A DNA stretch of 64,000 bases from positions 38,289,203-38,353,202 of the forward strand of contig JASXTE010000005.1 in NCBI GenBank assembly GCA_030280995.1, written 5' to 3'. How positions within the stretch are numbered: the first letter of the stretch is position 1; each line of letters begins with the position of its first letter. Position numbers and translations under genes: made by a program. The stretch is from Hemileia vastatrix (taxonomy: Eukaryota > Basidiomycota > Pucciniomycetes > Pucciniales > Zaghouaniaceae). This document shows positions 9,374 to 48,330 of the stretch, piece after piece. The notes under the pieces were generated by a model. The model was given only the letters and a program-made list of their open reading frames with translations. It was not told the DNA's origin and ran no database searches.

Positions 9374-9441
9374 CTAGACAAGAAGAATTGGATCAGTAAT
9401 TATTTTTGTTGAAGAAATGGAATAATTAATTTGGTACTTAC
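9374..9441 (-). other. Intron in antisense gene 1, element A
   Basis: Minus-strand donor GTAAGTACC, acceptor TTGTCTAG, 68 nt, with ACTGAT as a plausible branch point. Removal keeps the frame. In element E the matching donor has become TTAAATAC, so that copy is probably unspliceable. Confidence 0.72.
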
Positions 9442-10106
9442 AGATTTGAAGCTCATCAAATCTGTAAGCAGCTGGGATTTGGATCTCTGACGATTTTGTA
9501 ATGGTCATAGTGGGTGGATCAACTAGGGAAAGATATGGATTCTCATGGTCTTCCTCTGAAGGATCCTGAGAAGGTGAACTGGGATGCTGAGGTTCCTGGG
9601 GCCTAGTTGGAGCAGTGAGATTGTTTTTGTTGTTGTGGTTGTTATTTCTGTTGGATTCAGCTGGAGGAGGTGCTGGTGATGGAGTACCAGGGCTGTTAAA
9701 GGATGGAGCAGGAGAGGGGGATTTGGAAGCAGACTGCTCTCTTCTGGATGGAGAATTTGAAGAGATGGAACTGTCAGAAGAGTAGTTGGCTGACAGAGGA
9801 GAGGTGTAGTTTCTTTGAATTAGTTGGGGATGAACTTTTTGTTGTGGAGCAGTGTGTGGTGTTCTGGTTTCTTCTTGGGGTTCTCTGGCAGGTCTCTTAG
9901 AAATCTGGTAAATTTTGGGGCATTTGGACTTTGGAAGGGTGGATTGCATTGCTCTGGGAGCAGTAGGAGGTAGTTGGGTTGAGTTGTTGTTGTTGTCTGG
10001 ATGACTTTGGCTGTTTTCTGGCCATTTTTGGAGGTTTTGGCCCTGATTTTCACTGTTTGGTGAGGCGGGCAGGCCGCCCGATGTCGGCCGGGCCGCCTGG
10101 ACATGG

Positions 10107-11242
10107 TGTGGTAGCCTAAAGTTTAGTATGGCACCTAAGTACATAAATAGAGTTATTAGGGCGTGCAAGATTGGCATTATTATTTTTTATAAAAGGGTTT
10201 TATTTAATTTATTTGATTTTCAAATATGAAGAAATTGGTCAAGAGCAAATGCCTACGCGAAAATAATTTATTTTAAGAAGAAAACTTATTTTTATGGTCT
10301 GAAGAGTTTATAAGTATCAAGTTGAGTCATTCAAGAACCTTGGGAAATTTTCCCAGAATTTTTACTATTTTTATTATATTTTTAAATGAATTTTAAAGTT
10401 TTATAGAAATATTTACGTTTTTAGAAATTACTTAACTTTGATGAATTTTCACGGGGTGATTAGAGCTGCGCAGACTACGAAAATTAATTTGGAATGTAAG
10501 GGGGAAGTGCCTCTATCATGTGTAATTTTTCTAGATTTTTTATCATAGTTTTAAAGGTTCTACTTGAGTCTGTTTGGACTCTGCTTCGACTCCGTACGGA
10601 CTCCGTTCGGACTCCGTTTTGACTTCGTACGGACTCCGCTTTGGCTCCGGATTGACTCTGGGAGAGCTCTGGAGGGGAAAACTTAGGCACGTGACTAGGA
10701 ATACTTAAGCGCCTCTCAAAATCGAAATTGAAAGGGGGAATACAACATACAGCTTAATCATTAACCACCACGGTCTCATTTTTTATTACTCGACAAATTA
10801 AATAAATTTGTAATACCCTTATAACTTTATATTTTATATATAACATTTTAGAAATACTACTCAACAATTTAAATCACACTTCATACAGGGTATCTTTAGA
10901 AAGGTCTTCCTCACTGGGACTTGATTATTGCTGTCTCATAAAAATTCAAATTATTATAAAAACATAAAAGTCAATCTTTTCAGATCTTTCACTGGTACAC
11001 CTTAATTGTTGTTATCAGTATTTCTTTTCTCAACAGCCACTTTTATTTAAATCTCAATAAGTGTTAATTATTTTAGAGTTTCATTATTTTTATTAAACAG
11101 ATCCAAGTAGACTGGTTAGCTTAGTGATTTAGAATATCCATTTTGTTATTTTTATTGGAAGGACAGGGTTTTCAGCTAAATCCACATATCTCCTCCGGAT
11201 TCTGCTTACAGCAAGGCGACTGTAAGAGTTTACCTTACCATA
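10107..11242 (+). mobile_element. Solo LTR of family B inside antisense gene 1
   Basis: Begins TGTGGTAGCCTAAAG and ends TTACCATA, matching the B LTRs at 18497-19648 and 30626-31734. It is flanked by ATGG (10103-10106) and ACGG (11243-11246), most simply an ACGG duplication with one C-to-T change. No internal region remains, so it arose by LTR-LTR recombination. It includes a 12-bp minisatellite (10565-10660, units near GGACTCCGTACG). Confidence 0.9.
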
Positions 11243-11819
11243 ACGGTCTAGAAGCATGGGAGTTGATCTTGAAGCTTTTGGAGCTAATTTGGCGGAGATA
11301 AAAGCAGTTTCTTGTGAGGCTAAGGCTGGTCTTTTGTGAAGAGTGCCGGAAGCTGAGCTTCTGGATCTTCTGGAAGGAGCAGAAGATCGAGAGGAAGAGG
11401 AAGGACCAAGCTCTGGGGATCTGGTAGGAGATCTGGAGATGTATTTGTGAGAAGGAGAAGGCGGAGGAATAGGGTAGTTGGCGTCTCTGTCACATCTTTT
11501 CTTTTTGGAATAGCAAGAGTCACAAGCCCTGTTGTAGAATTTGGATTCAGGATTTGGAAGAGTTTATGTGCAAGGTCTGCACATGTGGATGCACTGTTTT
11601 CAGGCATAGTCCTTGGGAGCAGTGAAGCAAGGGAGAGTAGAAGGGTTAACATCAGGAGATCCAGCCATGATCTGTGGTGAGAAAAGATGATGAAAAGGGA
11701 TAGGAGGAGATTTTTGTCAGTGATGGGTAGATGATGAAGTGAAGGTGGAAGCTCAGCAGGTTGGCTGTACAGGTGTGCTGCATGAAATTGGCTGCATCCA
11801 TTTTATGCAAAATTCAGTC

Positions 11820-12365
11820 AGTCCATCAAGACTCTAAACTGAAAAAGCTATGTTATAAAGAGAGTCAATCAAGACTCAAAACTGAAAAATCTATGGTATC
11901 AAGACCAGTCCATCAAGAATTTAAACTGAAATCTGGTTTCTGTTATTCCTCCAAGACTTTAAACTGGCTGGTTTCAATATTTTATCAAGTCTAGTCCGTC
12001 GAGACTTTAAACTGAACACTGTGTTAGTCCCCCAAGACTTTAAACTGAGGGTTGTAAGTCCCCCAAGACTATAAAATGAGGGAAAAGTTTTTGTTGTTGG
12101 AATTGGTTTTGAAAGATTGGTGGAGGGTATCCACAGGGGGAGCCTCCAAATTTAGCAAAGGCAAGTTTGGGGGTAATTGATGGGCTTGCAGCTCTATTTA
12201 CAATTACCCCAGAATTTAAGTTTTTTCTCTGTGTCTTAATGTGGTTTATCTCTGGTTCTGGGTTTATGATTTAGGTTTTTGAGTCCCCCAAGACTTTATA
12301 CTGAGGGTTTTTGAGTCCCCAAAGACTATAAAATGAGGATGGTCCCCCAAGACTTAAAACTGAGG
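11820..12365 (+). repeat. Array of the dispersed ~22-bp motif, element A
   Basis: About ten copies of a motif like GTCCATCAAGACTTTAAACTG at 11821, 11863, 11908, 11948, 11994, 12027, 12058, 12282, 12316 and 12341, all in element-sense orientation and 30-60 bp apart. It lies directly upstream (minus-strand sense) of antisense gene 1 and downstream of antisense gene 2. A second H1/H2 hairpin pair (12122-12210) sits within it. Confidence 0.85.
12122..12210 (+). promoter_or_regulatory. Hairpin modules H1 and H2, element A copy 2
   Basis: H1 is GGAGG (12122-12126) / CCTCC (12143-12147), changed on both sides relative to AGAAG/CTTCT elsewhere. H2 is GGGGTAATTG (12170-12179) / CAATTACCCC (12201-12210), a perfect 10-bp stem. 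Confidence 0.75.
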
Positions 12366-12423: not shown

Positions 12424-13064
12424 TCAAGTACTAGAGGAATTACAGAGGGAATCAAGAGATGAAATGAAGTGTTCAGAATTAGCCTTGAACTGGTGAATGA
12501 GGTGTCTTCTGTTCTCAATGTCCTGTGGATCTCTAGCAGGAGTGGATTGGAAGTAGTGAAGCAGAAGTTGTTTCTGTTGAGATGTGTGTTGTTGGAACTT
12601 GGCCTTGATAGTGGGCAAGTGCGTTGGTGTTGGTGGTGAAATGGATCCTACATTGTTATCATCACTATCAGAAGAGGGAGGAACTGAGAAGTTATTAGTT
12701 TTAAAGTTTAAGGAAGGAATGAATGTTCTTTACCATCAGATGGGCCAGGGATGGGGGAACTAGTTGTTTTATGGGTTGTGGCACTCTTCTGGGAAGGGTG
12801 GAGCTTTTTGATTAATCTGGGTATCAGGATGGATGGCCTAGATCTTTTGGTGCTTGCAGAAGAAGGACCAGGTTGAGATGGAGATGAATCTTTTGTGGAA
12901 GAAAGTGGACCAGGTCTGTGGCAGGTCTTCTTTCTGGATTGGCAGACATCGCAGGACGTTCTGTATGGATGGACAGGTGGTGTTATGGCGCAGATTAAAT
13001 TGTTGTCAATGCAGTATTGGCAGGGGCCCATTTCAGAGGCAGATTTGGGAAGAAGGCTAAACAT
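12424..13064 (-). CDS. Antisense gene 2 of element A: Zn2Cys6-like cysteine-cluster protein
   Basis: The frame runs from ATG 13064 (MFSLLPKSASEMG); the longer upstream ATG at 13184 lies in the LTR and is less likely. The cluster is CQYCIDNNLIC, 12 residues, then CDVCQSRKKTC, i.e. C-x2-C-x6-C-x12-C-x2-C-x6-C with the basic half second, the reverse of typical fungal Zn2Cys6 factors. A Ser/Pro/Lys linker follows. An intron at 12684-12733 (GTAAAG...ACTAATAAC...CTCAG, 50 nt) joins GPSDG to VPPSSDSDDN in frame. The C-terminal exon has QQKQLLLHYFQSTPARDPQD, predicted helical. No stops interrupt it. The closest relative is 29810-30502 in element B. It may be a DNA-binding regulator encoded by the retrotransposon; function not shown. 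Confidence 0.72.
12684..12733 (-). other. Intron in antisense gene 2, element A
   Basis: Minus-strand GTAAAG donor, CTAAT-type branch sequence (ACTAATAAC) and CTCAG acceptor; 50 nt. The equivalent intron in element B (30046-30129) lies at the same boundary between the Ser/Pro linker and the C-terminal exon. Confidence 0.75.
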
Positions 13065-13112: not shown

Positions 13113-14204
13113 TGTGGTCTTCCAACATTGGCAGGGGCCTTTGTTGTGTGATTTGGCGCTGTTTGTGCATGTCTTAATTGACATCTGTTAAAGAATTGGG
13201 TATTTTTCTGGTTTTATTCCGTGGATATTGGGTCTGCGGGTATGTGGGTACTATCATTAGATAGCCCTGGTTTTCTCTATATTTTATGTCTTTTAGACAT
13301 TTTTCATATTCTGAGTTTTAAGGGGTCATTTCCTCATTTTTCATTTATAAAAGATTGCTGTTTAATTTTGTTTTTTGTGTTTTACGGGCTAACCTTAAGT
13401 CTTAGGGTTATGTGCTTAGTACCATTGGATAGAGCTAATTTTTCTCTATATTTCATGTCACAATGTTGTTATAGTGAAATTGCGTGTTTTAAAGGTTTTA
13501 GTAGTTGTAGCTAATTTTTCTAAGTAGATTAGTGGTTTTTATTGGTTTTCTGGCTTCAGGGAGGCCGGGCCGCTTCAGGCGGCATCTCCGACGTTGGGCA
13601 GACCGCCCGCCTCTGTTTTAGGAGGTTGGGGAGCGCTCCAAGAGGGTTTTTTATGCAATTTGGCAGGTACAGGCGCCATATTGGTGGGTGCGCATGGGCT
13701 CTTAGTTAGTGGTCTGTGTGTACATAGTGAATAAGACAGTTTGGGGAAACCTTAATCATCATACAACCATCCGGAGGTGATATCATTGTTCCTCACTCAG
13801 TTTTCACTGTTTTCTGGCCACAATTGGCTGTGTTTGTTGCAAGTGAGTTCTTCATTTAACGTAACTTTGGCAACTGTTTTCTCTGTTATAGTCTTGCAAG
13901 CTATAGCAAGTATTATTGCTGTCTCTGGTGTGGATTTTCAGCCTACATCAAGTATCTTTGCTGTCTCTGGTGTGGACTTTGTTCTAAATTTCAGTTCTTT
14001 GGTCTGGTAGTCTATCTGGTGACTACTTTCTTGGCTCGTCAAGCAGTCAAGTGTGTTCAACAGGAGCTTTAGCAAAACAGGAACCAACATACTTTAGCAA
14101 GTAAATCTCACTCTATTTTTCTAAAGGGACAGGGGATTTTCTCTCTGGTTTTTCTCCAACTCCCTTGGTCAAGGCCTATAGCTAGTACTATAGGATTGTC
14201 TACA
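13113..14204 (+). repeat. 3' LTR of element A
   Basis: Partner of 430-1518, preceded by the purine tract TTGGAGGGAGGA and followed by the ACGG target repeat. Confidence 0.93.
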
Positions 14205-14208
14205 ACGG

Positions 14209-18496: not shown

Positions 18497-19648
18497 TGTG
18501 GTAGCCTAAAGTTTAGTATGGCACCTAAGTACGTAAATGGAGTTATTACGGCGTGCAAGATTGGCGTTATTATTTTTTATAAAAGGGTTTTATTTAATTT
18601 ATTGGAGTTTAAAATATGAAGAAATTGGTCACGAACAAATGCCTACACAAATACAATTTATTTTACGGAGAAAACTTATTTTTACGGTCTGAAAAATTTA
18701 TAAGTATCAAGTCAAGTCACTCAAGAACCTTGGGAAATTTTCCCAGAATTTTTACTATTTTTCTTATATTTTTAAATGAATTTTAAAGTTTTATAGAAAT
18801 ATTTATGTTTTCAAAAATTACTTAACTTTGATGAATTTTCACGAGGTAATTAGGGCTGCGCAGACTACGAAAATTAGTTTGGTATGTAAAGGGGAAGTAG
18901 CTCTATTATGTGTAATTTTTATAGATTTTGTATTACAGTTTTAAGGTTCTAATTGAGTCTGGAAGTCCTGACGGACTCCGTACGGACTCCGCTTTGACTC
19001 CGTATGGACTCCGTATGGACTCCGTTCCGGCTCCGTTTGGACTCCGTACGGGCTCCGGATTGACTCTGGAAGAGCTCTGGAGGGGAAAACTTAGGCACGT
19101 GACTAGGAATACTTAAGTGCTTCTCAAACTCGAAATTGAGAGGGGGGACACATCATACAGCTTAATCATTAACCACCACGGTCTTATTTTTTATTACTCA
19201 ACAAATTAAATAAATTTGTAATACCCTTATAACTTTATATTTTATATATAACATTTTAGAAATACTACTCAACAATTTAAATCACACTTCATACAGGGTA
19301 TCTTTAGAAAGGTCTTCATCGCTGGGACTTGATTACTGCTGTCTCATAAAAATTCAAATTATAATAAAAACATAAAAGTCAATCTTTTCAGATCTTTCAC
19401 TGGTACACCTTAATTGTTGTTATCAGTATTTCTTTATCAACAGCCACTTTCTTTAAATCTCAATAAGCGTTAAATATTTTAGAGTTTCATTATTTTTATC
19501 AATCAGATTCAAGTAGATTGGTTAGCTTAGTGATTTAGAATTCCCATTTTGTTATTTTTATTGGAAGGACGGGGTTTTCAGCTAAATCCACATATCTCCC
19601 CCGGATTCTGCTTACAGCAAGGCGACTGTAAGAGTTTACCTTACCATA
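18497..19648 (+). repeat. 5' LTR of element B
   Basis: Contains a tandem array of 11-13 bp units near GGACTCCGTACG (18970-19068), with more copies than the 3' LTR (31098-31150); this explains most of the 1152 versus 1109 bp length difference. Confidence 0.93.
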
Positions 19649-19650
19649 GT

Positions 19651-19667
19651 TGGCGCCCAACATGGGG
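19651..19667 (+). other. Primer binding site of element B (tRNA-Lys type)
   Basis: TGGCGCCCAACATGGGG, two bases after the LTR; one base different from the element A site. Confidence 0.78.
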
Positions 19668-19824
19668 TTCTATTTCTCTAGCTTTCTTTAAAGACTTACT
19701 TGGATCAAGAACGTTATTAGCCTGCAAGAGGCTTATTTTCTGGGACTCTAATTGGATTTTTGTTATTGGCCTGAAAGAGGCTTGTTATTTTATCGATTGT
19801 TAAGGCTTTACTTTACTTATTGGG

Positions 19825-22434
19825 ATGTCTTCTTCTGCTGTTGCTTCTGGATCTTCTAACCCTCTTACTCCCTCAGTTAGAATTGTTTCTTGGGATGGCC
19901 CAAAGTTTGATGGGGAGGAGGTTAAATGGTTCATTAGCAGGTATGAAGCTGCTGCTGCTGTTGATGGTGCTTCTCATGTGGATATGGTGAAGCAAGTTAG
20001 GTTTTTTATTGCTGATAGGGAGGTGGAAAAAGAGGTTATTGCTATGCAGGCATTCAAGGACAAGGATTGGGTTAAGCTTTCTAAAGCTATGGTTGATAGA
20101 TGGGGTGTTAGGTTTACTATGATGGACCTCAATAAAATTGTTGGAGACTGGCAAGCAAAAGGTGGAGTTTCTTCTATGGCTGACTTCAAAAAGCTCTGTG
20201 TTCAGTTTGATGAAGTGGTGGAATATCTCATACTGGTGGACAAGTTAGTGCATGAGAACCAAGCAAAAGATTTGTTTTGGACAGCATGCAGCAGGGATAT
20301 TCGTATGGACGTCTTGAAGGATCTTTCAAGAAAAGATTTGATGAAGGAACTGCCTAATGGTGAGCAGAAACTGCCGGCTCTGGAGGTTATCAAGGACAAC
20401 ATTCAAGCCCATCTAAAGTTATTGGCGTTGGACAAATATCAAGAGTCATGCACTCAATATGTTAGCAAGGCTAGCGAAGTTTTGGCCGAAAACAACGATA
20501 TTATGGTCAAAGCCCAGGAGGCCAAGAAGCCTCAAATGGGATTACCTGCTGCTAAAGTTGAGGGTAATGTAGATAATAAGATGGTCGATCACCTGGCCGA
20601 TTTAACGAAACAATTAAAAATATTTGTTCAAGAAACCCAGAACGCCAATAAGGCCCCAATCGCTTCTTTGTCGACGTCAACTTCTTATCAGTCTAGAGGG
20701 TATGAACGTCGAAAGTATAATGGCAATAATAATGGTAACCGCTTCCCAGGCAATGGGAGAAATGGTGGGAATGGTGGTAATGGATATAGAGGTGGCTATG
20801 ATGAGCCAAAGGTGTGCTCCTATTGTAATAGGAGGGGGCACAGAGCAACAGTTTGTTTTGCTCTTGATAAGGATATGGATGCTGGGCGAGTTCTTTTTGA
20901 TGGTAAAGTTTATAAATTTCCTGATGGTTCGTTCATCAAGCCCAGTGATGGACAGTCTCCTTCTGATTTTGTCAGAAGAAGTTTAACGGCTGAAAGGAGA
21001 GCCAGATTTGAAGAGGTGACGGATGAAGATGTTAATGCCAAGAGTGGCAAAAATGGCAATGGTAATGGTGGTAAAGCTGACAAGGGCAAGGAGAAAGAGG
21101 TCAGTAAAGCCACATTTTCTACTTCTTTTGGTGGTTTAGAGCTGGCGACGGTTGCCCAGGTGGAGGGTAGCTGTATGGCTGGCGAATACGATGTTAATGC
21201 TGCTAGAAGAGCAGCTGCTACTAAGGCGAAGAGTAGCATTCAGAGCCAATTAAGGGCTAATCCTGGCAAGGCCAATAACAAAGTGAACCCTTACTCTAAG
21301 GACAAGAATTCTAGTGCTCAAACTGCCGCCAACAAATTGAACCCTTACTCTAAGGACGAATTATATAAAATGCAGAAGGGGATTGCTGATATGGGGCCCC
21401 CTAGTTATGGCAAGTTTGATTTAAATGGTGAGCCTATGCCAGAGGATGATTCAAATTCTGAGGAGGACGTACCATTGGAGTCTCTACCCAGACCAAGTTT
21501 TAGCGGTCCCATCCCAATGGAGGGAGTAAGAAGGACTAGCAATGGATCAGGATTAGTGCAAGAAGCTGGTGACGGAGTTAGGGTTATAGAAAGTGAAGAT
21601 GTTATAATGGGGGGTGAAGATGGCTCGGTTGGACCTCAAGAGGTACCCAGGGCCAAGGTTGTTAAATCAAAGGTCCAGTATGAGCGACCAGTAGTTTCTG
21701 GTCAAGCTAATGCGATGGACGCAGTTTTGAATAGGGTGAATCAACTTCAGATTCCCTTATCTTTGGGGGAGTTATTTACAATTAGTCCGGCGCTTGCTGA
21801 AAAGCAAAAGAAGCATTTGACGAGGCGTCGGGTTTCCACTGGAGAGGTGGAATATATTTGTGAAAATGCTGAAAAGTTTGGGGAAGATGTAGATACACAT
21901 TTTTCCGCTCCCCTGGGTTACCTGGTGGTAACTCTTAACGGTAAAGAAGTAAAGGCCTTGGTCGATTCAGGGTCTCAAATTAATTTAATTTCATTGGAGC
22001 AAGCGACGAGTATAGGCTTGCCAATTAAAAGTGGAACTGGGGGAAACCTCAGAGGCATTGGAGGGCATGCAACAGAGCTGATGGGTACAGCTGAGCATGT
22101 CAGGTTAGGCATTGGTGGATCTGTTGGTAAGGTTCACTTTTATGTGGCCAGAGGAGCAGTCAAAACTGTTCTTGGTGGTCCTTTTTTGATGGATTTTGAG
22201 GCCAGGATAGGGTATCAAGCTGGCATGGGGATTAGTTTGGAGTTCACTGGTGAAGATATGCGGAGGTTACATATGCGGTTAGCGCCTCCTGGAGATGAAG
22301 GTTGGGAAACACAGCCAGGGATTACTACTCTGTGCCAGTGTTGTGTTTGCACCAAGAAGCGGCATGTAAAACGGACGGCTTCTGGAGAATTATGTTTGTT
22401 GGAAAAGGATGGATGCCCTCATTTTTTGGGGTAG
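19825..22434 (+). CDS. gag-pro: Gag-protease polyprotein of element B, 869 aa
   Basis: Uninterrupted frame from ATG 19825 (MSSSAVASGSS). Residues about 1-260 are capsid-like (WDGPKFDGEEVKWF, DMVKQVRFFIADREVEKEV, MVDRWGVRF). A Gly/Asn-rich stretch precedes a zinc knuckle C331-x2-C334-x4-H339-x4-C344 for RNA binding. A variable charged linker follows. Near residue 713 the motif ALVDSGSQINLI marks an aspartic protease (DSG active site) with LGGPFLMDF later. The protease is thus in the gag frame, with RT downstream in another frame. It ends CPHFLG at TAG 22432-22434, one codon after a TTTTTTG slippery site. It would form virus-like particles in the cytoplasm. Confidence 0.95.
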   Translation: MSSSAVASGSSNPLTPSVRIVSWDGPKFDGEEVKWFISRYEAAAAVDGASHVDMVKQVRFFIADREVEKEVIAMQAFKDKDWVKLSKAMVDRWGVRFTMMDLNKIVGDWQAKGGVSSMADFKKLCVQFDEVVEYLILVDKLVHENQAKDLFWTACSRDIRMDVLKDLSRKDLMKELPNGEQKLPALEVIKDNIQAHLKLLALDKYQESCTQYVSKASEVLAENNDIMVKAQEAKKPQMGLPAAKVEGNVDNKMVDHLADLTKQLKIFVQETQNANKAPIASLSTSTSYQSRGYERRKYNGNNNGNRFPGNGRNGGNGGNGYRGGYDEPKVCSYCNRRGHRATVCFALDKDMDAGRVLFDGKVYKFPDGSFIKPSDGQSPSDFVRRSLTAERRARFEEVTDEDVNAKSGKNGNGNGGKADKGKEKEVSKATFSTSFGGLELATVAQVEGSCMAGEYDVNAARRAAATKAKSSIQSQLRANPGKANNKVNPYSKDKNSSAQTAANKLNPYSKDELYKMQKGIADMGPPSYGKFDLNGEPMPEDDSNSEEDVPLESLPRPSFSGPIPMEGVRRTSNGSGLVQEAGDGVRVIESEDVIMGGEDGSVGPQEVPRAKVVKSKVQYERPVVSGQANAMDAVLNRVNQLQIPLSLGELFTISPALAEKQKKHLTRRRVSTGEVEYICENAEKFGEDVDTHFSAPLGYLVVTLNGKEVKALVDSGSQINLISLEQATSIGLPIKSGTGGNLRGIGGHATELMGTAEHVRLGIGGSVGKVHFYVARGAVKTVLGGPFLMDFEARIGYQAGMGISLEFTGEDMRRLHMRLAPPGDEGWETQPGITTLCQCCVCTKKRHVKRTASGELCLLEKDGCPHFLG

Positions 22435-22503
22435 CAGGGGCTGATCGCTCTAATGTTGTAATCTCTCCTCATAATGAGATCCCGGATTGCAATAGGTCAG
22501 CTC
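22422..22503 (+). promoter_or_regulatory. Programmed -1 frameshift signal, element B
   Basis: T TTT TTG (22422-22428) is in phase with gag (CAT TTT TTG GGG TAG). After a 9-base spacer, GGGCTGATC (22438-22446) pairs with GGTCAGCTC (22495-22503). An inner stem, TTGTAATC (22456-22463) / GATTGCAA (22485-22492), takes the place of the unrelated CTACAAC/GTTGTAG stem of element A: different sequence, same structure. A -1 slip gives FFGVAGADRSNVV, the upstream part of pol. Confidence 0.78.
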
Positions 22504-25500
22504 ACTTGGAGATAATTCAAGTGTATTCTCAATTATTTTCTGTTAATATTACTTTGGAGTGCAAATACGTTTTGGACTTTTCTATATGTTTATTGGATTT
22601 ACCCGGTTTTTCTATTAAATTTAAAAACGGTGAAAAAGGCAAAATGGGCCAAATTAGGTTGGATAAAAATTGGAAGGGTATGTTTTATGACCTCCAGCAA
22701 GAGGTTAAACTGCAATTACCTCCTTCTATTACGGACCTCCAGCAAGAGGGTAAACTGCAAATATCACATCAAAATCCGATAAAAAATTTCAGTATAATTA
22801 AAACACAAAAAAATAATTTTTGTGAAAATTCAATTCCGGTCCTCCAGCAAGAGGTTAAACTGCCAACTTTCTTTACGGGTGATTTACTGTTGGATAAGGG
22901 AAGCAAAGGTGTTGGAAAATCTGTTTATAAATTAGACGAGGGAAAGGAGAAAAGGGTAAAATTTAAAAATGAAATAAAATATTTTTCTAATTTTTCTTAT
23001 TCCGATTCTGACGATGAAGAAGATTCATTTGATGAAAGTTTTAATGGCGATGTTTTACCTCAAGTTTATTTAGATGTGGACGCAGCCAAATATAAGAAGG
23101 TAGCAAATAAAGTTCGACCTATTAATGAACCGCTACCTGCTGAATTAAATCCACCTTTGAGAAGACCAAGGTTATCAAGAGATCCTTATGAAAGTCCCTT
23201 GGTAAAGAATCCGCCTGAATTTTCTGAGACATCAAGAATCACTTTTGAGAGACTGGGTGTTGTTAATTTTGGACCTGATGGTTGGTTGTCTGGAGAAGAG
23301 AAGAAGTTGTTGTTGGATGTGATGGTCAAGCGAGAGAAGGCCATTGCTTTTGTAGAAGAGGAGAGGGGTGTGTTGAAGCATTCCTATGGGGAGCCTTACA
23401 AGATTCCTGTGGTATGTCATGAACCGTGGCAGCAGAAACCGATTCCTATTCCGGCTGCATTAAAAGAAGCCTATATTGAAGTTGTCAGAGAACGGATACG
23501 CACTGGACTGTATGAGCAATCAACGTCAAGTTATTCTAGTCCTGTATTTTGTATCAAGAAACCGAATGGCAAGCTTAGAGTTGTTCATGATCTTAGGGAA
23601 TTAAATAGGGTTACAATAAAGGATGCTGGGATACCGCCTAGTGCTGAGGAGTTTGTTGAAGCGTTTGCAGGGAGAGTGTGTTATGGTTTGGGAGATATTA
23701 TGGGTGGATATGATGAGAGAGAGTTACATCCGGACTCAAGGCCTCTCACTACATTCGATACGCCACTTGGACGTTTACAGTTAACAAGATTACCTCAAGG
23801 AGCAACAAATTCGGTTGCAGTTTATCAAGCTCAGATGGCTTGGATCCTTCAAGATGAAATTCCACAATATGCTGGAATCTTTATAGATGATGGAGGAATT
23901 AAGGGACCAACAACCGACTATGATAACCAGGTGTTGGAAGAGAATCCTGGGATACGCAAATTCATTTGGGAGTTTGAAATTACTTTAGAAAGAATCTTGT
24001 TTCGAATTGAAGAGGCTGGCTTAACTATTTCAGGTTCAAAATTTTCATGTTGTGTGCCAGCCTTAGAAATATTAGGCCATGTGGTATGTAGAGAGGGTAG
24101 GATTATGTCCAAGAAGAAAGTTAACAAAATTCAGTCCTGGCCAAGACCCAAGAATACGACCGAAGTTAGAGGGTTTTTAGGCGTTTGCGTATATGTTAGA
24201 ATGTTTATTAAGGACTTTTCTTCATTGGCAGCTCCATTGAGATGGTTAACGAGAAAGGATGCAGACTGGGAGTGGGATGAAGAGTGTGAGAAGGTGTTTG
24301 TGAAGTTGAAGGAGGTTGTGGGGAAGGATTTAGTCCTGCACAAGTTGGATTATGGAAAAGATGCTGGCAGAATTTATTTAGCAGTTGATTCAAGTCAGGT
24401 TGCAGCTGGGGCAGTTTTGTCTCAGATGGATAAAGCTGGTTACATCAGGCCAGTTAGGTATGAATCTGTAGTATTTAATGAGGTCGAATCAAGATATTCT
24501 CAACCAAAATTGGAATTATGTGGTGTGGCGAAAATACTGAAGAAACTTCAGCATATTTTGTGGGGGCAACATTTTGAGTTGCAAGTGGATGCGAAATCGT
24601 TAATCCAGATGATTAATTCCCCAAGTTTACCGAATGCACCCATGACGAGATGGGTAGCTTTTATTCAACATTTTTCGTTTGATTTAGTTCATAAGCCTGG
24701 CAAAACTTTTACTATGCCAGATGGTTTATCAAGGAGACCACCCACTGAAGAAGATTCAGACTCAGAAGAGTTCGATGAAGATATACCTATTATCAAAGCC
24801 AGCACTAAAGGAGCTGAAGACTTTCCATACCTCCCCCATGAGGTTAAACTGGCAGGACTATTGTGTTTAGATTATGATGATGATGACCTCCACCAAGAGG
24901 ATAAACTGGAAAATAGTTTTTATGTTAATAAAGGTGTTGGAAAAGGTGTAGATAAATTCGGTAGAAAGGAGGTAGAAGAAGATGTGGTGTATGTAGAGGA
25001 AGATGGATTGGTAGTGTGGGATAGTAGTAAATTAAGGAATGGTGTATATGTTGGAGAATTAGAGAATTTAAATAAAAGGGTGGATAAAGAGAAAGAGGTA
25101 TTTTCAAATACGGTTTTTGAAGGATCCAAAGGTTCAGAAGAAAAACGTCGACATAGCTCGATTAAAGATTTATTTAGGGGTCAACGATTATTGGCTCATT
25201 CATGTGCAGGTGATATTGGTGATAGAGAAGTCCCTATTGATGTTATATTAATCAATTTTCAAGATGAAGTCTGGGGTCAGACTGGTTTTTATTTTTTGTT
25301 AGTCAAATATTTGTTGACTTTAGAGAGGCCAGAAGATTGTGAAGACGATGAATGGGTGGCTATCAAGAGGAAGTCATCTACGTTTTACCTATCTGGTCGA
25401 CGTTTAATGAGGAGGAGGTATCCAAATCCTCATGTAGTTATAACTCAAGAGAAGGGGCAAGAATTAGTTTTGAAATCACTGCATGAAGATCTCGGGCATA

Positions 25501-26543
25501 GAGGCATTGGAGAAACGTTTAGAAGAATTTCTGATTGATTTTGGTGGCCTGGCATGAAGATGGCTGTTAAACAGTGGGTTCAGTCATGCGAAGAATGTCA
25601 AAGACAAAGCTATTTAAGGCCAAAAGAACCTGGACGCGCAACCGGTGAATATATGCTCTTTGGGAGAGTTAGTTTAGATGCCGTTCATATAAAAGAGGGA
25701 CAGTATAAATATTTAATTGTGGCCAGAGATGATTTATTTGGTTGGGTAGAGGCAGCGCCTCTTATTAATTTAACTGCCAAAAATGTGGCAGAATTTTTTT
25801 TGAATAATTGGGTATATAGGTATGGGGTGATGAAGTTGGTAACGGTAGATGGAGGTCCTGAATTTGGGACAGAGTTTAAAGAGGCCGTATTGAAAGTTGG
25901 ATCAAAGGTTAGGGTAGCAACCCCATATTATCCTGAAGCTGAAGGCATGGTTGAAAGAGGGCATCAAGTTATTAAGGATGCTTTAGTTAAAATGTGTGGG
26001 ACAAGTGCCAAAAAGTGGAGGCACTATTTACCTTTAGTTTTATTTGCTGATCGAATCACTGCCAAAAGGACGACCGGATTTTCACCTTATGAACTTGTTT
26101 TTGGACAGAAAGCAGTTTTACCGGTTGATTTAGAAGCTGAATCATATCTTGGAGTTGACTGGGACACGGTCAAAACTACTGAAGAATTATTGTGTGCAAG
26201 AATGATGCAGCTAGAAAAGAAAGAAGAATATTTAGAAAAGGCATATTCGCGGATGATGAAGATCCAAAATCAATCAGTTAGATATTGGGATGAGCGGTTG
26301 GCACATTGATTAAGGAAACCTTTGAACCCAGGTGATATGGTCTTGGTGTATAATAGGAGTTTGGAAAGTCAGTGGGGAAAGATGTTTGCAGATAGGTGGA
26401 ATGGACCGTATAAAATCAAGGAGCAAGTTTCCGGCGGTTCATATGTGCTAGAAGAGTTGGATGGAGTAGTATTAAAGAAGAGGGTAGCAGCCGATCAAGT
26501 GAAACGGTTCTATCCTAGAGACACCAGGAGTGCCAAAGTCTAA
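22429..26543 (+). pseudogene. pol: Pol polyprotein of element B, open except for two TGA codons
   Basis: The frame is shared with a possible ATG at 22302 but is most likely entered by -1 frameshift near 22428. A spacer with LQQEVKLQ motifs is followed by reverse transcriptase (VVHDLRELNRVTI; LPQGATNSVAVYQ; catalytic FIDD 23880-23891), RNase H (IYLAVDSSQVAAG; LQVDAKSL; HKPGKTFTMPDGLSR), a second spacer, and integrase: HEDLGHRG/CEEC zinc finger, D in LDAVH, D in VTVDGGPEFG, E in GMVERGH, and a C-terminal GPY/F module (WNGPYKI, GSYVLEELDG). Stops TGA 25536-25538 and 26306-26308 sit where relatives have Arg, consistent with CGA-to-TGA. The frame ends DTRSAKV at 26543. Confidence 0.93.
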
Positions 26544-27665: not shown

Positions 27666-28658
27666 TCAAGGGTTGTTATCTTTTGAAGAATCGAAATTAG
27701 AAAATTTAGAAGGACCTTGATCGATTTCCTGGGATTTGAATCTTATTTCACGGTCACGATAGTGTTGAAGCCAGTTGGATATTTTGAAAAGGTCTCTTAA
27801 CAGTTGCTCTCTCATCCAAGATTCTGATCTATCAGAGGGCGGGTATCGTTGGAAATAAGCGATAAGGTTATTAAAATTAGCAAAAAGCTTTTCAGACACT
27901 AGGTGAATTGGAACTCTAGGGAAGCTTGGATTAGGTTCTGGTAGTTCATAAGCAGAATATGAAATTGGAGAACCGGTGGACGCTTATCAAATTAAAATAT
28001 CAGCAAATTAAAACCTGAAGATTAAGAAAATAAAAAGAGACAACTAACCTGTGTCAACACTATCATGATCATAGCTAAATGGCTTACTTGGTAATGGAGT
28101 GGGATTTTTTATTTTTGATAGATGAGGAGGACTGGTGTTGGATTTGGTGTTTGAAGTAGATGTTCTGGGCCTTTTGGATGATACAAGAGAAGATGAAGAC
28201 TGCTGGCTATTATAGGACCTTTTGTGCTTCAAGATGTTGGAAGAAGGAGAAGAATTGTTAGAAGGTTGAAGCATGGCCCTGGGAGCAGCAAGAGTTCTTG
28301 GGGGAGTAGCAGCAAGTCTAGATTGGAGAGAAGGACCCAGAGGATTAGGTGATGGAGAAAGATTTAAATAGGCTGATGGAGAAAAAGGGATGGGATCTTT
28401 AGAGGTTGATGGAATAGGGGGTGGAGTAGAAGGTGAAGAAGAAGGAAGAGGTTTGCAGAAGGCGGCGAAGCTAGTAGCAGTGATGGGGAAAGAACCACAG
28501 TTCAAGCCAGAACATTTTCTTTTCTTCTCATAGCAGGATAAACAGGCCCTGTTATAAGTGTGCTTTTGCCAGTTAAAAGAGAAGATACATTCCCTATGGG
28601 TGAAGGCACAGTATTTGCAAGATTGATCAGCTGAAGCAATGAAGTCAGAAGGTTTCAT
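27666..28658 (-). CDS. Antisense gene 1 of element B: cysteine-cluster protein
   Basis: ATG 28658 (MKPSDFIASADQS). The cluster CKYCAFTHREC, 14 residues, then CLSCYEKKRKC follows C-x2-C-x6-C-x14-C-x2-C-x6-C. A long Ser/Pro/Thr-rich linker with basic patches (KHKRSYNSQQ, SSKRPRTSTSN; possible nuclear localisation) follows. An intron at 27983-28048 (GTTAGT...GATAAG, 66 nt) joins DSVDTA to STGSPISYSAYELP. The last exon has EKLFANFNNLIAYFQRYPPSDRS and LLRDLFKISNWLQHY, predicted helical. It shares a plan with gene 2 (same cluster, linker, intron, F-rich C-terminus), so the two look like ancient duplicates. No stops. A transcription-factor-like role is inferred. Confidence 0.7.
27983..28048 (-). other. 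Intron in antisense gene 1, element B
   Basis: GTTAGT donor after GACACAG, acceptor GATAAG; 66 nt; removal joins two open frames. The non-GTAAGT donor makes this less certain than the other introns. Confidence 0.55.
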
Positions 28659-28749
28659 CTTGTTAGGAGATATTTTTTTGAAGAAGAAAACTTGAAACTA
28701 GGATGAAGAAAGCTGGTGGCAAAATCTGGGTTCAAGGATAGAGAAGTTG

Positions 28750-29225
28750 TTAGGTCCACCAAGACCTTAAACTGGACTATTATCAAGTGTTGGGTCCACC
28801 ATGACCTTAAACTGGATTTCTTATCAATTAAATGTTTGGTCCACCATGACTTTAAACTGGTAGTTCATTCATTGTTTATTCCACTATGACTTTAAACTGG
28901 AAAATTAATATCTGCAGGATAATTCAACATTCATTGGACCACTATGGCCTTATACTGGATTACTTGTCGATCAAATGTTTGGTCCACTATGACATTAAAC
29001 TGGATTATCAAATTTATTCAATCTTTGGTCAAGCCTAGGCCTTATTTAGGAATATTTCAAGTTATTTATGCACCTAAACGATCTTTGGTCCACCAAGACC
29101 ATAAACTGGCAATCGATTATATGTTTGGTCCACCAAGACTTTAAACTGGAATGTCAATCTTGTTTGGATAACTCAATTCAATCTTTTAATTTATCACTGT
29201 CCACTAAGACTCTAAACTGGTTATT
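28750..29225 (+). repeat. Array of the dispersed ~22-bp motif, element B
   Basis: Nine copies close to GTCCACCAAGACTTTAAACT at about 28756, 28795, 28839, 28880, 28937, 28981, 29088, 29129 and 29200, all in element-sense orientation, typically 40-60 bp apart, directly upstream of antisense gene 1. Confidence 0.88.
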
Positions 29226-29504
29226 CAATTATTTCTGGAATTGGGTGCTGATAGCTTTAGGAGGTTAAAATTTTAGGTGGTGATGATGCTAAAAAAAGCA
29301 TAATGGTTAATTAGGTAAAATTTGTGGCGCTTTAACATGGTCTAAAGTTAATATTATTATTGGAAGCCTGGCAAAAGTATTTTATGGGTTTGCTGTATAG
29401 CAAAGTTTGAAAATTGTGATGAAGGAATCAGAAGTTAGGATGGTAGTTGGATTTTAGGGAATGATTTTTTTTAGTGCCTCATAGTTAGGCCATTTTTTTT
29501 TGGT

Positions 29505-29705
29505 GTGAAGCTTGGAGGACCTTATGGCCAGATTGGAATCATAGAATTCGGCTCAGTGGGGGGCCCTATGAGGTTGGAATCAGGAGTATTCGGCTCATAG
29601 GAAGATCCACTCTCTCAATGCTGTGACAAGAAGGAAGACTGGTATATGGGAGTCTGAAGGGATTCAAACCTTGCTCTCAGTAGTGGAATCATCACAAGAT
29701 TTATA
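29505..29705 (+). promoter_or_regulatory. Conserved noncoding block with hairpin H6, element B
   Basis: CCTATGAG (29565-29572) is exactly complementary to CTCATAGG (29594-29601). Within the block TGGAATCA...ATTCGGCTCA occurs twice. The block is recognisable in element D (48630-48820), although that element has lost most coding capacity. No homologue seen in A. Confidence 0.6.
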
Positions 29706-29809
29706 TTATTTTATTTTATGTTATATCAAGCCAGAGAAGAAAGAAAACATCATTTATGTTGAAAGTTTAAGAAGACCAAGCAAAAACAAAATTTTATCAA
29801 GTTATACTG

Positions 29810-30502
29810 TTAGAAAAGATAATTTCTTTGAAATTGTTCAACATCATTATCAAAGCTTTGCATTAACATTCTTCTTTTCATGAGGTCTTCATGGTTATTA
29901 GCTGGAGTTTCTTGAAAATAGGCCAGCATTTTTCGTTTCAACTCATTAGTAAAGTCAAGAAAAAGATAGCGATGAAAATTTGGGTAATGATTGATATAGT
30001 CCGTCTTCACTCTACCAACATCATCATTGTTGGTTATTTCGACAGCTAGAAGTTCAAATATGTTATTAAGTCATAGGTTTAGTCAATTTTGATTAAAAGT
30101 TTTTTTTAGTAAGATAAATAGGGTCTTACATTTAGAGCCAGGAAACATAGTCTCAGCAAAGTTAGTTGGGGGTACTGGCGTTATAGGATTAGGATCTTGT
30201 GAAGGCAAAATTAGGCCGGGATCTGTTGATGAAGATTGAACTTTTGAAGCTGTTTTTGATCTTATTTGTTTTAAGAAGACAGGAATTTTGGATCGCTTTT
30301 TAGAAGTTGAGGGATCAGGGAGAGCTGCTGGTCCTAAATATACGTTTGTTTTAGAAGGAACTATTGGCCGGTTGCATTTGATTTTTTTCACACGGCATAA
30401 GTCGCAAGCTGTTCTGCCAGGAAGATTAGGGTTGGACATTAAACAAGGTACCTGGTATCGAGCGCAGAGTTCACATGGAGCGACAAGTTCTTTGGAAGAC
30501 AT
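29810..30502 (-). CDS. Antisense gene 2 of element B: Zn2Cys6-like cysteine-cluster protein
   Basis: ATG 30502 (MSSKELVAP). The cluster CELCARYQVPC, 12 residues, then CDLCRVKKIKC follows C-x2-C-x6-C-x12-C-x2-C-x6-C; the second half resembles the basic first half of classical fungal Zn2Cys6 DNA-binding domains. A Lys/Ser-rich linker ends ETMFPGSKS. An intron at 30046-30129 (GTAAGA...CTTCTAG, 84 nt) leads to an exon reading VEITNNDDVGRVKTDYINHYPNFHRYLFLDF and LAYFQETPANNHEDL. The C-terminal motif YFQxTPA is shared with gene 2 of A and with the decayed copy in D. No stops. It overlaps no sense gene and lies next to the 3' LTR, which could supply its promoter. Confidence 0.75.
30046..30129 (-). 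other. Intron in antisense gene 2, element B
   Basis: Donor GTAAGACC, TTGACTAAACC as a branch site, acceptor CTTCTAG; 84 nt. Splicing restores one frame from GSKS to VEITNND. In the same place as the element A intron. Confidence 0.75.
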
Positions 30503-30625
30503 ATTGATGAAGATGAATTTTATAGTTGATTAAAGAAGATGGTGGTTGAAGGTTAAAGATGAATATTGTGTTCAACCACTTATGCAAAGTTTTAAGAATG
30601 GGGACATTCTCGATTGGAGGGAGGA

Positions 30626-31734
30626 TGTGGTAGCCTAAAGATTAGTATGGCACCTAAGTACGTAAATGGAGTTATTATGGCGTGCAAGATTGGCGTTATT
30701 TTTTTTTATAAAAGGGTTTTATTTAATTTATTGGAGTTTAAAATATGAAGAAATTGGTCACAAACAAATGCCTACACAAATACAATTTATTTTACGGAGA
30801 AAACTTATTTCTACGGTCTGAAAAAATTTATAACTATCAAGTCAAGTCACTCAAGAACCTTGGGAAATTTTCCCAGAATTTTTACTATTTTTCTTATATT
30901 TTTAAATGAATTTTAAAGTTTTATAGAAATATTTATGTTTTCAGAAATTACTTAACTTTGATGAATTTTCACGGGGTAATTAAAGCTGCGCAGACTACGA
31001 AAATTAGTTTGGTATGTAAAGGGGAAGTAGCTCTATTATGTGTAATTTTTCTAGATTTTTTATTATAGTTTTAAGGTTCTAATTGAGTCTCGAAGTCCGG
31101 ACGGACTCCGTACGGACTCCGCTTTGACTCCGTACGGGCTCCGGATTGACTCTGGAAGAGCTCTGGAGGGGAAAACTTATGCACGTGACTAGGAATACTT
31201 AAGCGCTTCTCAAACTCAAAATTGAGAGGGGGGACACATCATACAGCTTAATCATTAACCACCACGGTCTTATTTTTTATTACTCAACAAATTAAATAAA
31301 TTTGTAATACCCTTATAACTTTATATTTTATATATAACATTTTAGAAATACTACTCAACAATTTAAATCACACTTCATACAGGGTATCTTTAGAAAGGTC
31401 TTCATCGCTGGGACTTGATTACTGCTGTCTCATAAAAATTCAAATTATAATAAAAACATAAAAGTCAATCTTTTCAGATCTTTTACTGGTACACCTTAAT
31501 TGTTGTTATCAGTATTTCTTTATCAACAGCCACTTTCTTTAAATCTCAATAAGCGTTAAATATTTTAGAGTTTCATTATTTTTATCAATCAGATTCAAGT
31601 AGATTGGTTAGCTTAGTGATTTAGAATTCCCATTTTGTTATTTTTATTGGAAGGACGGGGTTTTCAGCTAAATCCACATATCTCCTCCGTATTCTGCTTA
31701 CAGCAAGGCAACTGTAAGAGTTTACCTTACCATA
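30626..31734 (+). repeat. 3' LTR of element B
   Basis: Preceded by the purine tract ATTGGAGGGAGGA; partner of 18497-19648; followed by ACAG, a one-base variant of ACGG. Confidence 0.93.
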
Positions 31735-35577: not shown

Positions 35578-36640
35578 TCCTCCCTCCAATCAAGAATGTC
35601 CCCATTCTTCCTTCACCAACAACCATGTTCAAACACCTCTCCAGAATCTTTACTAACAGCCCATTTCTCTCTTCCTCTGGATCCTATTCCATCCTAAGTG
35701 AACTTCTGAACCAGAAATCCAAGCTTCTTCTTTAAAATTTCTCTTGCACCATGCCTTTAAATTCAATCTATTCCTGTGAAAAAATTTCTTCCTTCTGTTT
35801 CTGAATTCTAACTCTGGCTGTACCAGCCTCCAACAATAAAAAGTGCTATCCAGTTGACCAGTCTTCCTGACTATAACCTTCTACCAGCATAAAAATTTCC
35901 TCATTTTATAGTCTTGGGGGACTAGCCCTCAGTTGAAAGTGTTGGGGGACTAACAGACCTCAGTTTAAAGTCTTGAGGGACTAACAGCCCTCAATTTATA
36001 GTCTTGGGGGACTCCGAAAATTCTCAGTTTATAGTCTTGGGGGACTGTGAAAACCTGAATCACAGAACCCAGAACCAGAGATCAACCAGAAAAAGATTTA
36101 GAGAAGTAACTAACTTTCTGGGGTAACTGTATATAGAGCTGCCAGCCTATCAGTCACCCCCCAACTTGCCTTTACAAAATTCAGAAGTTCCCTCTTGGAT
36201 CCTTCTGAATTTAAACTTCTGCCTCACACTGCCCCCCATTCCTCAGGTTATAGTCTTGGGTGAATTTCCATCAAAAAATCTTGAGCCCATAATTAAAAGA
36301 TCAGCTTAAAGTCTTGAAGAACTTTCCAGAAAAAAATCTTGAAGATATATCCCATAAATCCCCAAACCAAAAAAACATCAAATCCAAAGCATTTAACCTC
36401 CTTTAACAAATAAAACAAAATAAAATGATATCCCCCAGCCAATTGATGAGCTGATCCCTTTATACCTTACCCAAATCCAAGTGCACCTTGATGTGGTCAC
36501 ACCTAAAAAAAATTTATATTTTTTATTATTATTTTGACTCCTCTTCTACCAAAAACATTGCCATAGCCCTATCTTGAGCCTTTGAACAAACGTAGCCTTG
36601 ATAAAAAAATTAAAAGAAAAAAAGAGAAAAAAGAAAATAA
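35578..36640 (-). repeat. 3' noncoding region of element C: motif array and hairpins
   Basis: Seven reversed motif copies (for example CAGTTTAAAGTCTTGAGGGA) lie at about 35900-36040, 36245 and 36303. H2 GGGGTAACTG (36120-36129) pairs with CAGTCACCCC (36151-36160); H1 AGAAG (36183) pairs with CTTCT (36202); an H4 relative lies at 36471-36496. A plus-strand ATG at 35624 might be a ruined antisense gene 2, but no cysteine cluster is left. Confidence 0.72.
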
Positions 36641-47819: not shown

Positions 47820-48330
47820 TAGTCCTCCAAGACTTTAAGCTTACTAATTTTCAAGAATAATTCAAGACTTTGGACTTATGTTTTTTGATCTTTTAGGCCT
47901 TCAAGACTTTAAAATGAATACTTATGAAGCATTTCAAATAATATGGGATCTGTTAGTCATTCAAGACTTAAAACTGAATATTTTAGAAGAAAATTTAAAA
48001 AATATATGATCAATGGAATGTTTTTGGTTCACTATTACCTTAAACTGGGAACAAATTAAAAGACTTTGTCCACTATGGAAAATACTAGAAACGTACTATA
48101 GGGATTTGGTTTTCTAAGACTTTAAACTAGTAATAACATCAAAATGTCAATCATTGGTCCCCTATGACTTTAAACTGGCAAATTAATTTCACTTTGCTCC
48201 ACCAAGACTATAAACTGGAAATCTATTAAGAATTTGGTTTCAGGGATATTAGAAGGAAATTATAATCCAGTGGGATATTCAATTCAGTAATTTTTAATTT
48301 ACCATTGGCTCATCAGTACTCAAACTGGTA
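47820..48330 (+). repeat. Motif array of element D
   Basis: About nine decayed copies of the ~22-bp motif, best preserved at 48157 (CCCCTATGACTTTAAACTGG) and 48200 (CTCCACCAAGACTATAAACT). No antisense gene 1 is left between the hairpins and the array. Confidence 0.75.

What the first reader, a model, noticed from the sequence alone, without database searches (positions are those of the whole stretch)
27666..30502. Paired antisense, intron-containing Cys-cluster genes carried in the 3' region of gypsy elements
Seen: elements A and B each carry two minus-strand genes between pol and the 3' LTR. Three intact clusters fit C-x2-C-x6-C-x12/14-C-x2-C-x6-C with the basic half second. Each gene then has a Ser/Pro linker, a short GT-AG intron and a helical exon with F/YFQ..P-type residues. 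D keeps a ruined gene 2 and E a ruined gene 1. Known: classical fungal Zn2Cys6 factors have the basic half first; antisense ORFs exist in some plant and viral retroelements. Inferred: genes 1 and 2 are ancient duplicates and encode regulators of the element. I know of no description of this arrangement.
Basis: partly seen in the sequence, partly recalled or inferred. Interest (0 to 1): 0.86.

Follow-up and report, generated by a model that had tools for sequence, protein, structure and literature searches.

The report
Paired antisense regulator genes in rust retrotransposons
Jumping genes in what is probably a rust fungus carry two extra genes on their backward strand, long preserved by natural selection and looking like gene switches with a rearranged fungal zinc cluster, which suggests the elements bring their own control system.

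Summary
Confirmed and extended. Two gypsy elements, probably from a rust fungus (inferred from pol), carry two minus-strand genes between pol and the 3' LTR: P (pol-proximal) and L (LTR-proximal). L is open in A and B, P in B; A's P is broken, D keeps a broken L, E a broken P. All four introns are short, GT-AG, phase 1. Three intact clusters fit C-x2-C-x6-C-x12/14-C-x2-C-x6-C (0 in 60 resampled windows), with the halves in the opposite order to Gal4/Ppr1. The last exon is predicted as a helical hairpin. dN/dS in the proposed frames is 0.10-0.12 (last exon) and 0.31-0.40 (exon-1 regions), against 0.04-0.11 for reverse transcriptase and 0.80-2.18 in wrong frames, so the neutrality refutation fails. 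New: all 24 TTAAACTG octamers follow a 4/6/4 inverted repeat (16 with 4 pairs, 8 with 3); 10 lie between P and L. All nine CGG-N3-CCG sites lie in B-type LTRs. Best reading: paired, element-encoded zinc-cluster DNA-binding regulators acting on the element. Selection is shown; splicing, binding and regulation are inferred. Antisense genes with repeat arrays are known from plant Retand elements, and one antisense gene from Botrytis Boty.

The parts
18497..19648 (+). 5' LTR of element B (TGTGGT...CCATA); possible 4-bp target duplication, ACGG at 18493-18496 vs ACAG at 31735-31738
   Evidence: self-blastn and boundary reading
19651..19670 (+). primer-binding-site-like sequence starting TGGCGCCCAAC, 2 nt after the 5' LTR of B
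   Evidence: sequence; assignment as PBS recalled, not tested
19825..22434 (+). gag-protease ORF of B
   Evidence: Pfam aspartyl protease hits
22302..26309 (+). pol frame of B (RT, RNase H, integrase), one in-frame stop in integrase
27666..28658 (-). P gene of B: exon 1 28658-28049, phase-1 intron 28048-27983, exon 2 27982-27666; 308 aa; cluster C-x2-C-x6-C-x14-C-x2-C-x6-C
28753..29219 (+). array of 8 inverted-repeat sites (RGTC-N6-GACY-TTAAACTG type, up to 6 mismatches) between the P and L genes of B; 6 have the exact TTAAACTG
29810..30502 (-). L gene of B: exon 1 30502-30130, phase-1 intron 30129-30046, exon 2 30045-29810; 202 aa; cluster C-x2-C-x6-C-x12-C-x2-C-x6-C
30616..30625 (+). purine-rich tract GGAGGGAGGA abutting the 3' LTR of B; same sequence abuts the 3' LTR of A
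30626..31734 (+). 3' LTR of B; the L gene start codon is 124 nt away on the other strand
31096..31167 (.). tandem CGG-N3-CCG array in the 3' LTR of B (equivalents 18971-19066 and 10572-10658)
430..1518 (+). 5' LTR of element A (outer flank ACGG 426-429 equals 14205-14208)
8958..11668 (-). P gene of A, broken: two premature stops in exon 1 and a solo B-type LTR (10107-11242) inserted; last intron 9441-9374
11820..12362 (+). array of 10 inverted-repeat sites (up to 6 mismatches) between the P and L genes of A; 4 have the exact TTAAACTG
12424..13064 (-). L gene of A: exon 1 13064-12734, phase-1 intron 12733-12684, exon 2 12683-12424; 196 aa, open; cluster spacing x12
13113..14204 (+). 3' LTR of A; the L gene start codon is 49 nt away on the other strand
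48962..49626 (-). broken L gene copy in element D
56864..57818 (-). broken, 5'-truncated P gene copy in element E
47821..48217 (+). 7 inverted-repeat sites (up to 6 mismatches) in the 3' region of D
35902..36323 (-). 7 inverted-repeat sites (up to 6 mismatches) in a reversed element fragment (F)

Best explanation
The two minus-strand genes are genuine accessory genes of a lineage of gypsy elements, probably of a rust fungus. Each encodes a small modular protein: an N-terminal binuclear-zinc-cluster-like domain whose two halves stand in the opposite order to Gal4 (a circular permutation of Zn2Cys6), a Ser/Pro-rich linker, and a C-terminal helical hairpin that most likely dimerises. The L gene begins 49-124 nt from the 3' LTR, so its promoter is probably in or next to that LTR, read backwards. 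The P gene lies behind the repeat array that separates it from L. The most likely mode of action is that the proteins enter the nucleus as dimers and bind inverted repeats in the element itself (the TTAAACTG-linked 4-bp/N6 palindromes between P and L and in pol; the CGG-N3-CCG array in B-type LTRs), tuning transcription of sense or antisense units. Shown: gene anatomy, selection on the proteins, shared ancestry of the L genes and of the P genes, and the repeats. Inferred: splicing, dimerisation, DNA binding, and that the repeats are the targets.
For: dN/dS in the proposed frame: L exon 2 B/D 0.10, L exon 1 0.31, P exon 2 A/E 0.12, P linker 0.40; RT controls 0.11 and 0.04; other frames of the accessory genes 0.80-2.18; in 2000 bootstraps per comparison none had pN>=pS. 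A and B L genes 72 bits; same intron phase in all four genes. Pfam Zn_clus on B's L: 24.3 bits against cut-off 21, two stretches, the best matching protein 31-45 to profile 1-15; A's L best stretch matches protein 13-30 to profile 17-35: the halves are swapped (the position of the second stretch is not printed). PDB: Ppr1 matches B's L from residue 29 (E 0.0028); Gal4 and Lac9 match its second half without significance (E 0.27-3); Lac9 matches both halves of the L profile in swapped order, also without significance. AlphaFold2 of L exon 2: helices 21-45 and 51-75, pLDDT 93-95 over residues 31-70. TTAAACTG: 24 of 24 (both strands) follow a 4/6/4 inverted repeat, 16 with four and 8 with three pairs, 88 of 96 positions paired with G-U counted, against 16-57 of 96 at other spacer lengths; 16 cells changed on both sides, covariation score 0.446 vs 0.164 shuffled, 0 of 500. 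CGG-N3-CCG: 9 of 9 in B-type LTRs, 3 each; 0.022 per shuffle of the 3' LTR.
Against: No transcription or splicing data. The cluster model has low confidence (mean pLDDT 57, no meaningful fold match), so the zinc fold rests on sequence. The Pfam cut-off is reached by B's L only (A's L 14.9, B's P 8.1 bits). By pN/pS the last exons (0.24-0.26) are somewhat less constrained than RT (0.13-0.20). The palindromes have no CGG half-sites, and the A-type LTRs have no CGG-N3-CCG, so one fixed target is not shown. The nine CGG-N3-CCG sites are tandem units in three copies of one LTR family, hence not independent. Two of five covariation measures do not exceed the shuffles (pairs changed on both sides 2 vs 2.1; pair types 5 vs 5.6), and related sequences can raise the others. 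In pol the sites encode LQQEVKL-like peptides in one frame (8 of 8), so peptide selection could contribute there. Two protein searches with L and P found no relative; DNA scans, made with pol only, found no related locus. The dN/dS pairs use broken copies in D, A and E.
Confidence: 0.55

Rival explanations
1. Anti-silencing factors: the proteins bind the element's repeats to remove or prevent host repression (as VANC proteins of plant VANDAL transposons do; recalled), rather than acting as ordinary promoter regulators.
For: Same anatomy would serve; repeats are spread through the pol and 3' region rather than sitting only at a promoter.
Against: Nothing here separates it from transcriptional control; no chromatin data.
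Confidence: 0.2
2. RNA or replication role: the repeated 4/6/4 unit is an RNA hairpin in the genomic transcript, read by Gag or by the L/P proteins (packaging, export), and not a DNA site.
For: Arms covary, with four G-U cells; 23 of the 24 exact sites are on the + strand, the sense strand of elements A to E, and the other is in a reversed fragment.
Against: Stems of 4 bp; the B array folds no better than shuffles (z +1.72; 96 of 100 shuffles at least as stable); an inverted DNA site covaries in the same way.
Confidence: 0.12
3. Captured host transcription-factor genes riding along, with a function for the host or none.
For: Introns are kept, and zinc clusters are typical fungal host factors (recalled); capture is known for retroelements (PMC7264820 passages).
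Against: Same order P-L in two families whose LTRs do not align, divergence under constraint, and remnants in D and E point to long residence in the elements.
Confidence: 0.08
4. Chance or overlapping-frame artefact: open frames antisense to non-coding element sequence with no product.
For: No expression data; other copies are broken.
Against: Frame-specific purifying selection, in the last exon close to that on RT; cluster pattern 3 observed, 0 in 60 resamples.
Confidence: 0.02

Closest known systems
Plant Retand-lineage gypsy elements (PMC11963269; abstract and passages seen)
   Same: Long pol-3'LTR region with antisense ORFs predicted to bind DNA and tandem repeat arrays, most often in the same region; regulatory role proposed, unproved.
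   Different: Plant hosts; TRP28 (PF04195) domain, not a zinc cluster; the word 'intron' occurs 0 times in its main text; its repeats are family-specific, whereas here one motif is shared across the element families of the window.
brtn of Boty elements, Botrytis cinerea (Zhao et al. 2011; seen only as cited in PMC7264820 and PMC8365987, passages)
   Same: Fungal element with an additional antisense gene.
Grande gene23, RIRE2, PvRetro13 antisense ORFs (PMC7264820; passages seen)
   Same: Antisense ORF between pol and 3' LTR; Grande's product is nuclear and transcribed from its own promoter.
   Different: Plants; the review says no clear similarity to other database proteins has been described for these products.
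Gal4-type Zn2Cys6 factors (Ppr1 1pyi, Gal4 1d66, Lac9 1cld)
   Same: Two C-x2-C-x6-C halves; the basic half of B's L (CDLCRVKKIKC) is close to Gal4's (CDICRLKKLKC).
   Different: Halves in the opposite order, inter-half spacing 12-14, a predicted helical hairpin where Gal4-type factors have a coiled coil (recalled), and carried antisense in a retroelement.

Membership tests
Fungal Zn2Cys6 (Pfam PF00172) | Six cysteines as two C-x2-C-x6-C halves | tested here: met
   Three intact clusters
Fungal Zn2Cys6 (Pfam PF00172) | Order: basic half first, profile matched end to end | tested here: not met
   Basic half is second in all three; best Pfam stretches and Lac9 match the halves in swapped order
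Fungal Zn2Cys6 (Pfam PF00172) | Score above the curated cut-off (21 bits) | tested here: inconclusive
   B's L 24.3 (two stretches), A's L 14.9, B's P 8.1
Fungal Zn2Cys6 (Pfam PF00172) | Predicted binuclear cluster fold | tested here: inconclusive
   AlphaFold2 mean pLDDT 57 from 3 sequences; a short helix at each CxxC (10-16, 32-39); no meaningful fold match
Fungal Zn2Cys6 (Pfam PF00172) | Zinc-dependent binding of paired triplets | not testable with these tools
   Needs a binding assay
Retand-type plant gypsy elements | Antisense ORFs between pol and 3' LTR | tested here: met
Retand-type plant gypsy elements | TRP28 (PF04195) domain | tested here: not met
   Three intact proteins scanned against Pfam at E<=10: only Zn_clus, and a weak SOG2 match for B's P
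[quoted passage not shown]
Retand-type plant gypsy elements | RT in the Retand lineage | not tested
   Best RT relatives named as fungi are rusts, 75% identity; no tree was built
Boty brtn | Sequence homology to brtn | not tested
   No brtn sequence obtained

The most novel reading that the evidence does not exclude
A retrotransposon lineage carries a complete regulatory circuit: two paralogous dimeric factors with a circularly permuted Zn2Cys6 domain and its own operator system, in which the two palindrome classes (GTC-N6-GAC between the genes, CTC-N6-GAG in pol) and the CGG-N3-CCG LTR array are read by the two different proteins to set element expression or evade silencing.
Probability: 0.25. 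Interest if true: 0.85.

Novelty: new variant of a known kind. Interest (0 to 1): 0.64.

Why it matters
Why many long gypsy elements keep antisense genes is an open question; the 2020 plant review says their roles are undetermined (PMC7264820, passages). Here the same layout occurs in what is probably a rust fungus, with a recognisable DNA-binding-type domain, selection on the last exon close to that on reverse transcriptase, and a candidate target motif repeated in the same region. That turns 'accessory antisense ORF of unknown role' into a specific protein-site hypothesis. A circularly permuted zinc cluster would also show that the pseudo-symmetric Zn2Cys6 fold tolerates swapping its halves.

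Tried and rejected
Protein searches with B's L gene (14 candidates, none at E<=10) and with residues 170-290 of the last part of A's P gene (25 candidates, none) found no relative. This says little, because candidates need shared 5-residue words and the A and B L genes are only 27% identical. DNA loci: 2 scans of viral contigs and 2 of genome contigs, with pol and not with L or P, gave no confirmed relative. Rfam at gathering threshold: no match in the window. Fold searches: best E 8.0 for the cluster model and 5.0 for the hairpin, none significant. The RNA-hairpin idea for the repeat was weakened. Of 49 loose repeat hits, two in gag (20203, 40373; 6 mismatches) were set aside as chance. The covariation count used only the 24 sites chosen by the anchor TTAAACTG; identical rows were merged to 23. 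The chance-frame explanation was rejected on the frame-specific dN/dS.

Literature: 8 searches, each showing 8 to 20 papers of longer hit lists; among those shown I saw none on Zn2Cys6-like antisense genes in LTR elements. Only open-licence PMC papers are held, and I saw listings and passages, no whole paper.
Full report
What was claimed and what is there. The spliced models translate as described: B's L gene 30502-29810 (202 aa), B's P gene 28658-27666 (308 aa), A's L gene 13064-12424 (196 aa). All four introns, A's broken P included, are short (50, 66, 68 and 84 nt), GT-AG and phase 1. The three intact clusters are the only matches in the window to C-x2-C-x6-C-x12/14-C-x2-C-x6-C, and 60 first-order Markov resamples of the window gave none.

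Elements and boundaries. Element A has LTRs 430-1518 and 13113-14204 (97% identical) with ACGG on both outer sides. Element B has LTRs 18497-19648 and 30626-31734 (96-98%) and sits inside an A-type LTR, with ACGG and ACAG outside. The A-type and B-type LTRs do not align with each other in the blastn self-comparison, while the RT regions are 77% identical in DNA. Both have a TGGCGCCCAAC sequence just after the 5' LTR and the purine tract GGAGGGAGGA at the 3' LTR. B's pol has one in-frame stop in integrase. A's P gene has two premature stops in exon 1 and a solo B-type LTR inserted at 10107-11242. D keeps a broken L copy and E a broken, truncated P copy.

Host. Among hits named as fungi the RT region matches rusts best: Puccinia striiformis 75% identity, P. 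coronata 72% over 72% of the query, Austropuccinia psidii 66% (517 proteins at E<=0.001, 120 listed; the top hits, 77%, are unnamed). The species is not identified, and the genome search did not complete.

Selection. Pairwise Nei-Gojobori in the proposed frames: L exon 1 B/D 0.31 (117 codons), L exon 2 B/D 0.10 (76), P linker A/E 0.40 (164), P exon 2 A/E 0.12 (111). RT controls: B/D 0.11 (370) and B/A 0.04 (376). The two other frames of the same alignments give 0.80 to 2.18 for the accessory genes and 1.16 to 2.74 for RT. In 2000 codon bootstraps per comparison none had pN>=pS. Some partners are broken copies, which should raise these values. dS runs from 0.8 to 2.5 and is in part near saturation, so pN/pS is the safer figure: 0.24-0.26 for the last exons (95% ranges 0.15-0.42), 0.51-0.53 for the exon-1 regions, 0.13-0.20 for RT. 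The last exon is thus close to RT, somewhat less constrained.

The proteins. L of A and B share 27% identity (72 bits; E 5e-20 among my five sequences); P of A and B share the cluster region at 32-33 bits and the last exon at E 0.009-0.013. L and P are linked by the cluster (pairwise hhalign E 5e-4, probability 31%) and weakly by the last exon (blastp E 0.008; hhalign E 0.029, probability 1.7%). The second half of B's L, TACDLCRVKKIKC, is close to the first half of Ppr1 (E 0.0028) and of Gal4. The nine PDB sequences listed at E<=10 are Ppr1, four Gal4 chains and Lac9 (E 0.27-3), and three unrelated ones (E 0.2-1.3). Pfam Zn_clus matches B's L above its cut-off (24.3 against 21 bits) in two stretches, the best aligning protein 31-45 to profile 1-15. 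A's L (14.9 bits) aligns protein 13-30 to profile 17-35, and B's P reaches 8.1 bits. Lac9 aligns both halves of the L profile in swapped order, at scores not significant alone. I read this as a circular permutation of the pseudo-symmetric Zn2Cys6 domain. AlphaFold2 predicts the last exon of L as two long helices (21-45 and 51-75) with pLDDT 93-95 over residues 31-70; YFQ ends the first helix and TPA lies in the turn. The cluster model is weak (mean pLDDT 57).

Candidate targets. TTAAACTG is the commonest octamer using all four letters on the + strand (23 copies; one more on the - strand, in a reversed fragment). All 24 follow an inverted repeat of 4-nt arms and 6-nt spacer, 16 with four pairs and 8 with three (G-U counted); at random positions of the window four pairs occur in 2.5% and three in 13.8%. 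In all 88 of 96 arm positions pair, against 16-57 of 96 for the other spacer lengths from 3 to 11. Of the 24, 4 lie between P and L of A and 6 between P and L of B. Arms are mostly CCTC/GAGG in the pol copies of A and B and AGTC/GACT or GGTC/GACC(T) in the 3' region. Covariation score 0.446 against 0.164 shuffled, 0 of 500; cells paired 91.3% against 73.4%, 0 of 500; but the number of pairs changed on both sides (2 vs 2.1) and of pair types (5 vs 5.6) do not exceed the shuffles. With up to 6 mismatches 49 sites are found, against a mean of 0.8 in 20 block shuffles: 10 between P and L of A, 8 between P and L of B, 7 in D's 3' region, 7 in the reversed fragment, the other 17 elsewhere. As RNA, the B array folds no better than shuffles (z +1.72), which favours a DNA site, though an RNA hairpin is not excluded. 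The pol copies tested (8 of 8) encode L-x-x-E-V-K-L-like peptides in one frame. Separately, all nine CGG-N3-CCG sequences of the window lie in the three B-type LTRs, three each; 2000 shuffles of the 3' LTR give 0.022 on average. They are tandem units in copies of one LTR, hence not independent. CGG/CCG triplet pairs are the classical Zn2Cys6 target (recalled). CGG/CCG pairs with gaps up to 12 number 59 in the window: 36 in the six A- and B-type LTR copies, none in D's LTRs, and 23 elsewhere, of which 17 are in two GC-rich blocks near 10070 and 35270.

Mechanism. Shown: two constrained antisense genes per element lineage, their anatomy, and repeated inverted sites beside them. Inferred: antisense transcription with the L promoter in or near the 3' LTR, splicing, dimerisation through the helical hairpin, and binding of the element's inverted repeats to control it. 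Which repeat is read by which protein is open. Rivals are anti-silencing (0.2), an RNA role of the repeat (0.12), captured host genes (0.08) and chance (0.02).

What is known. [quoted passage not shown] Other plant elements have antisense ORFs of unknown role (PMC7264820, passages). Boty of Botrytis has antisense brtn (as cited in PMC7264820 and PMC8365987, passages). Among the papers shown by eight capped searches I saw none on Zn2Cys6-like antisense genes in LTR elements. Hence: new variant of a known kind.

Noticed in passing
4508-4661, 7960-8241, 11820-12362, 22691-22862, 24830-24908, 26990-27011, 28753-29219, 45005-45026, 47150-48217, 55490-56063, reversed 35902-36323: Repeated unit (4-nt arm, 6-nt spacer, complementary arm, TTAAACTG) shared by the element families in the window, with covarying arms; in pol it encodes LQQEVKL-like peptides, and one of the 120 listed pol relatives (P0057) also has such a peptide.
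   Followed up: partly
18971-19066, 31096-31167, 10572-10658: 11-bp tandem array of CGG-N3-CCG palindromes in B-type LTRs; the window's nine CGG-N3-CCG sites are all there.
   Followed up: partly
10066-10095 and 35251-35389: GC-rich blocks (GGCGGGCCGCCCG-like) in an AT-rich window, one a 38-bp tandem array, resembling by eye a block in the A-type LTR.
   Followed up: no
59166-63924: Long array of roughly 600-bp repeats (up to 8 copies), holding a reversed B-type LTR fragment at 60522-60893.
   Followed up: no
426-429 / 14205-14208; 18493-18496 / 31735-31738; 10103-10106 / 11243-11246: ACGG or a one-base variant (ACAG, ATGG) flanks A, B and the solo LTR, hinting at a 4-bp target duplication with a preferred site.
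   Followed up: no
protein hits P0013, P0020: Records named as a Sphingobacteriaceae MAG encode rust-like gypsy pol (72-74% identical to the window's), probably contamination of the bin.
   Followed up: no
33482-34089: C-rich and G-rich tandem arrays that are partly inverted copies of each other.
   Followed up: no
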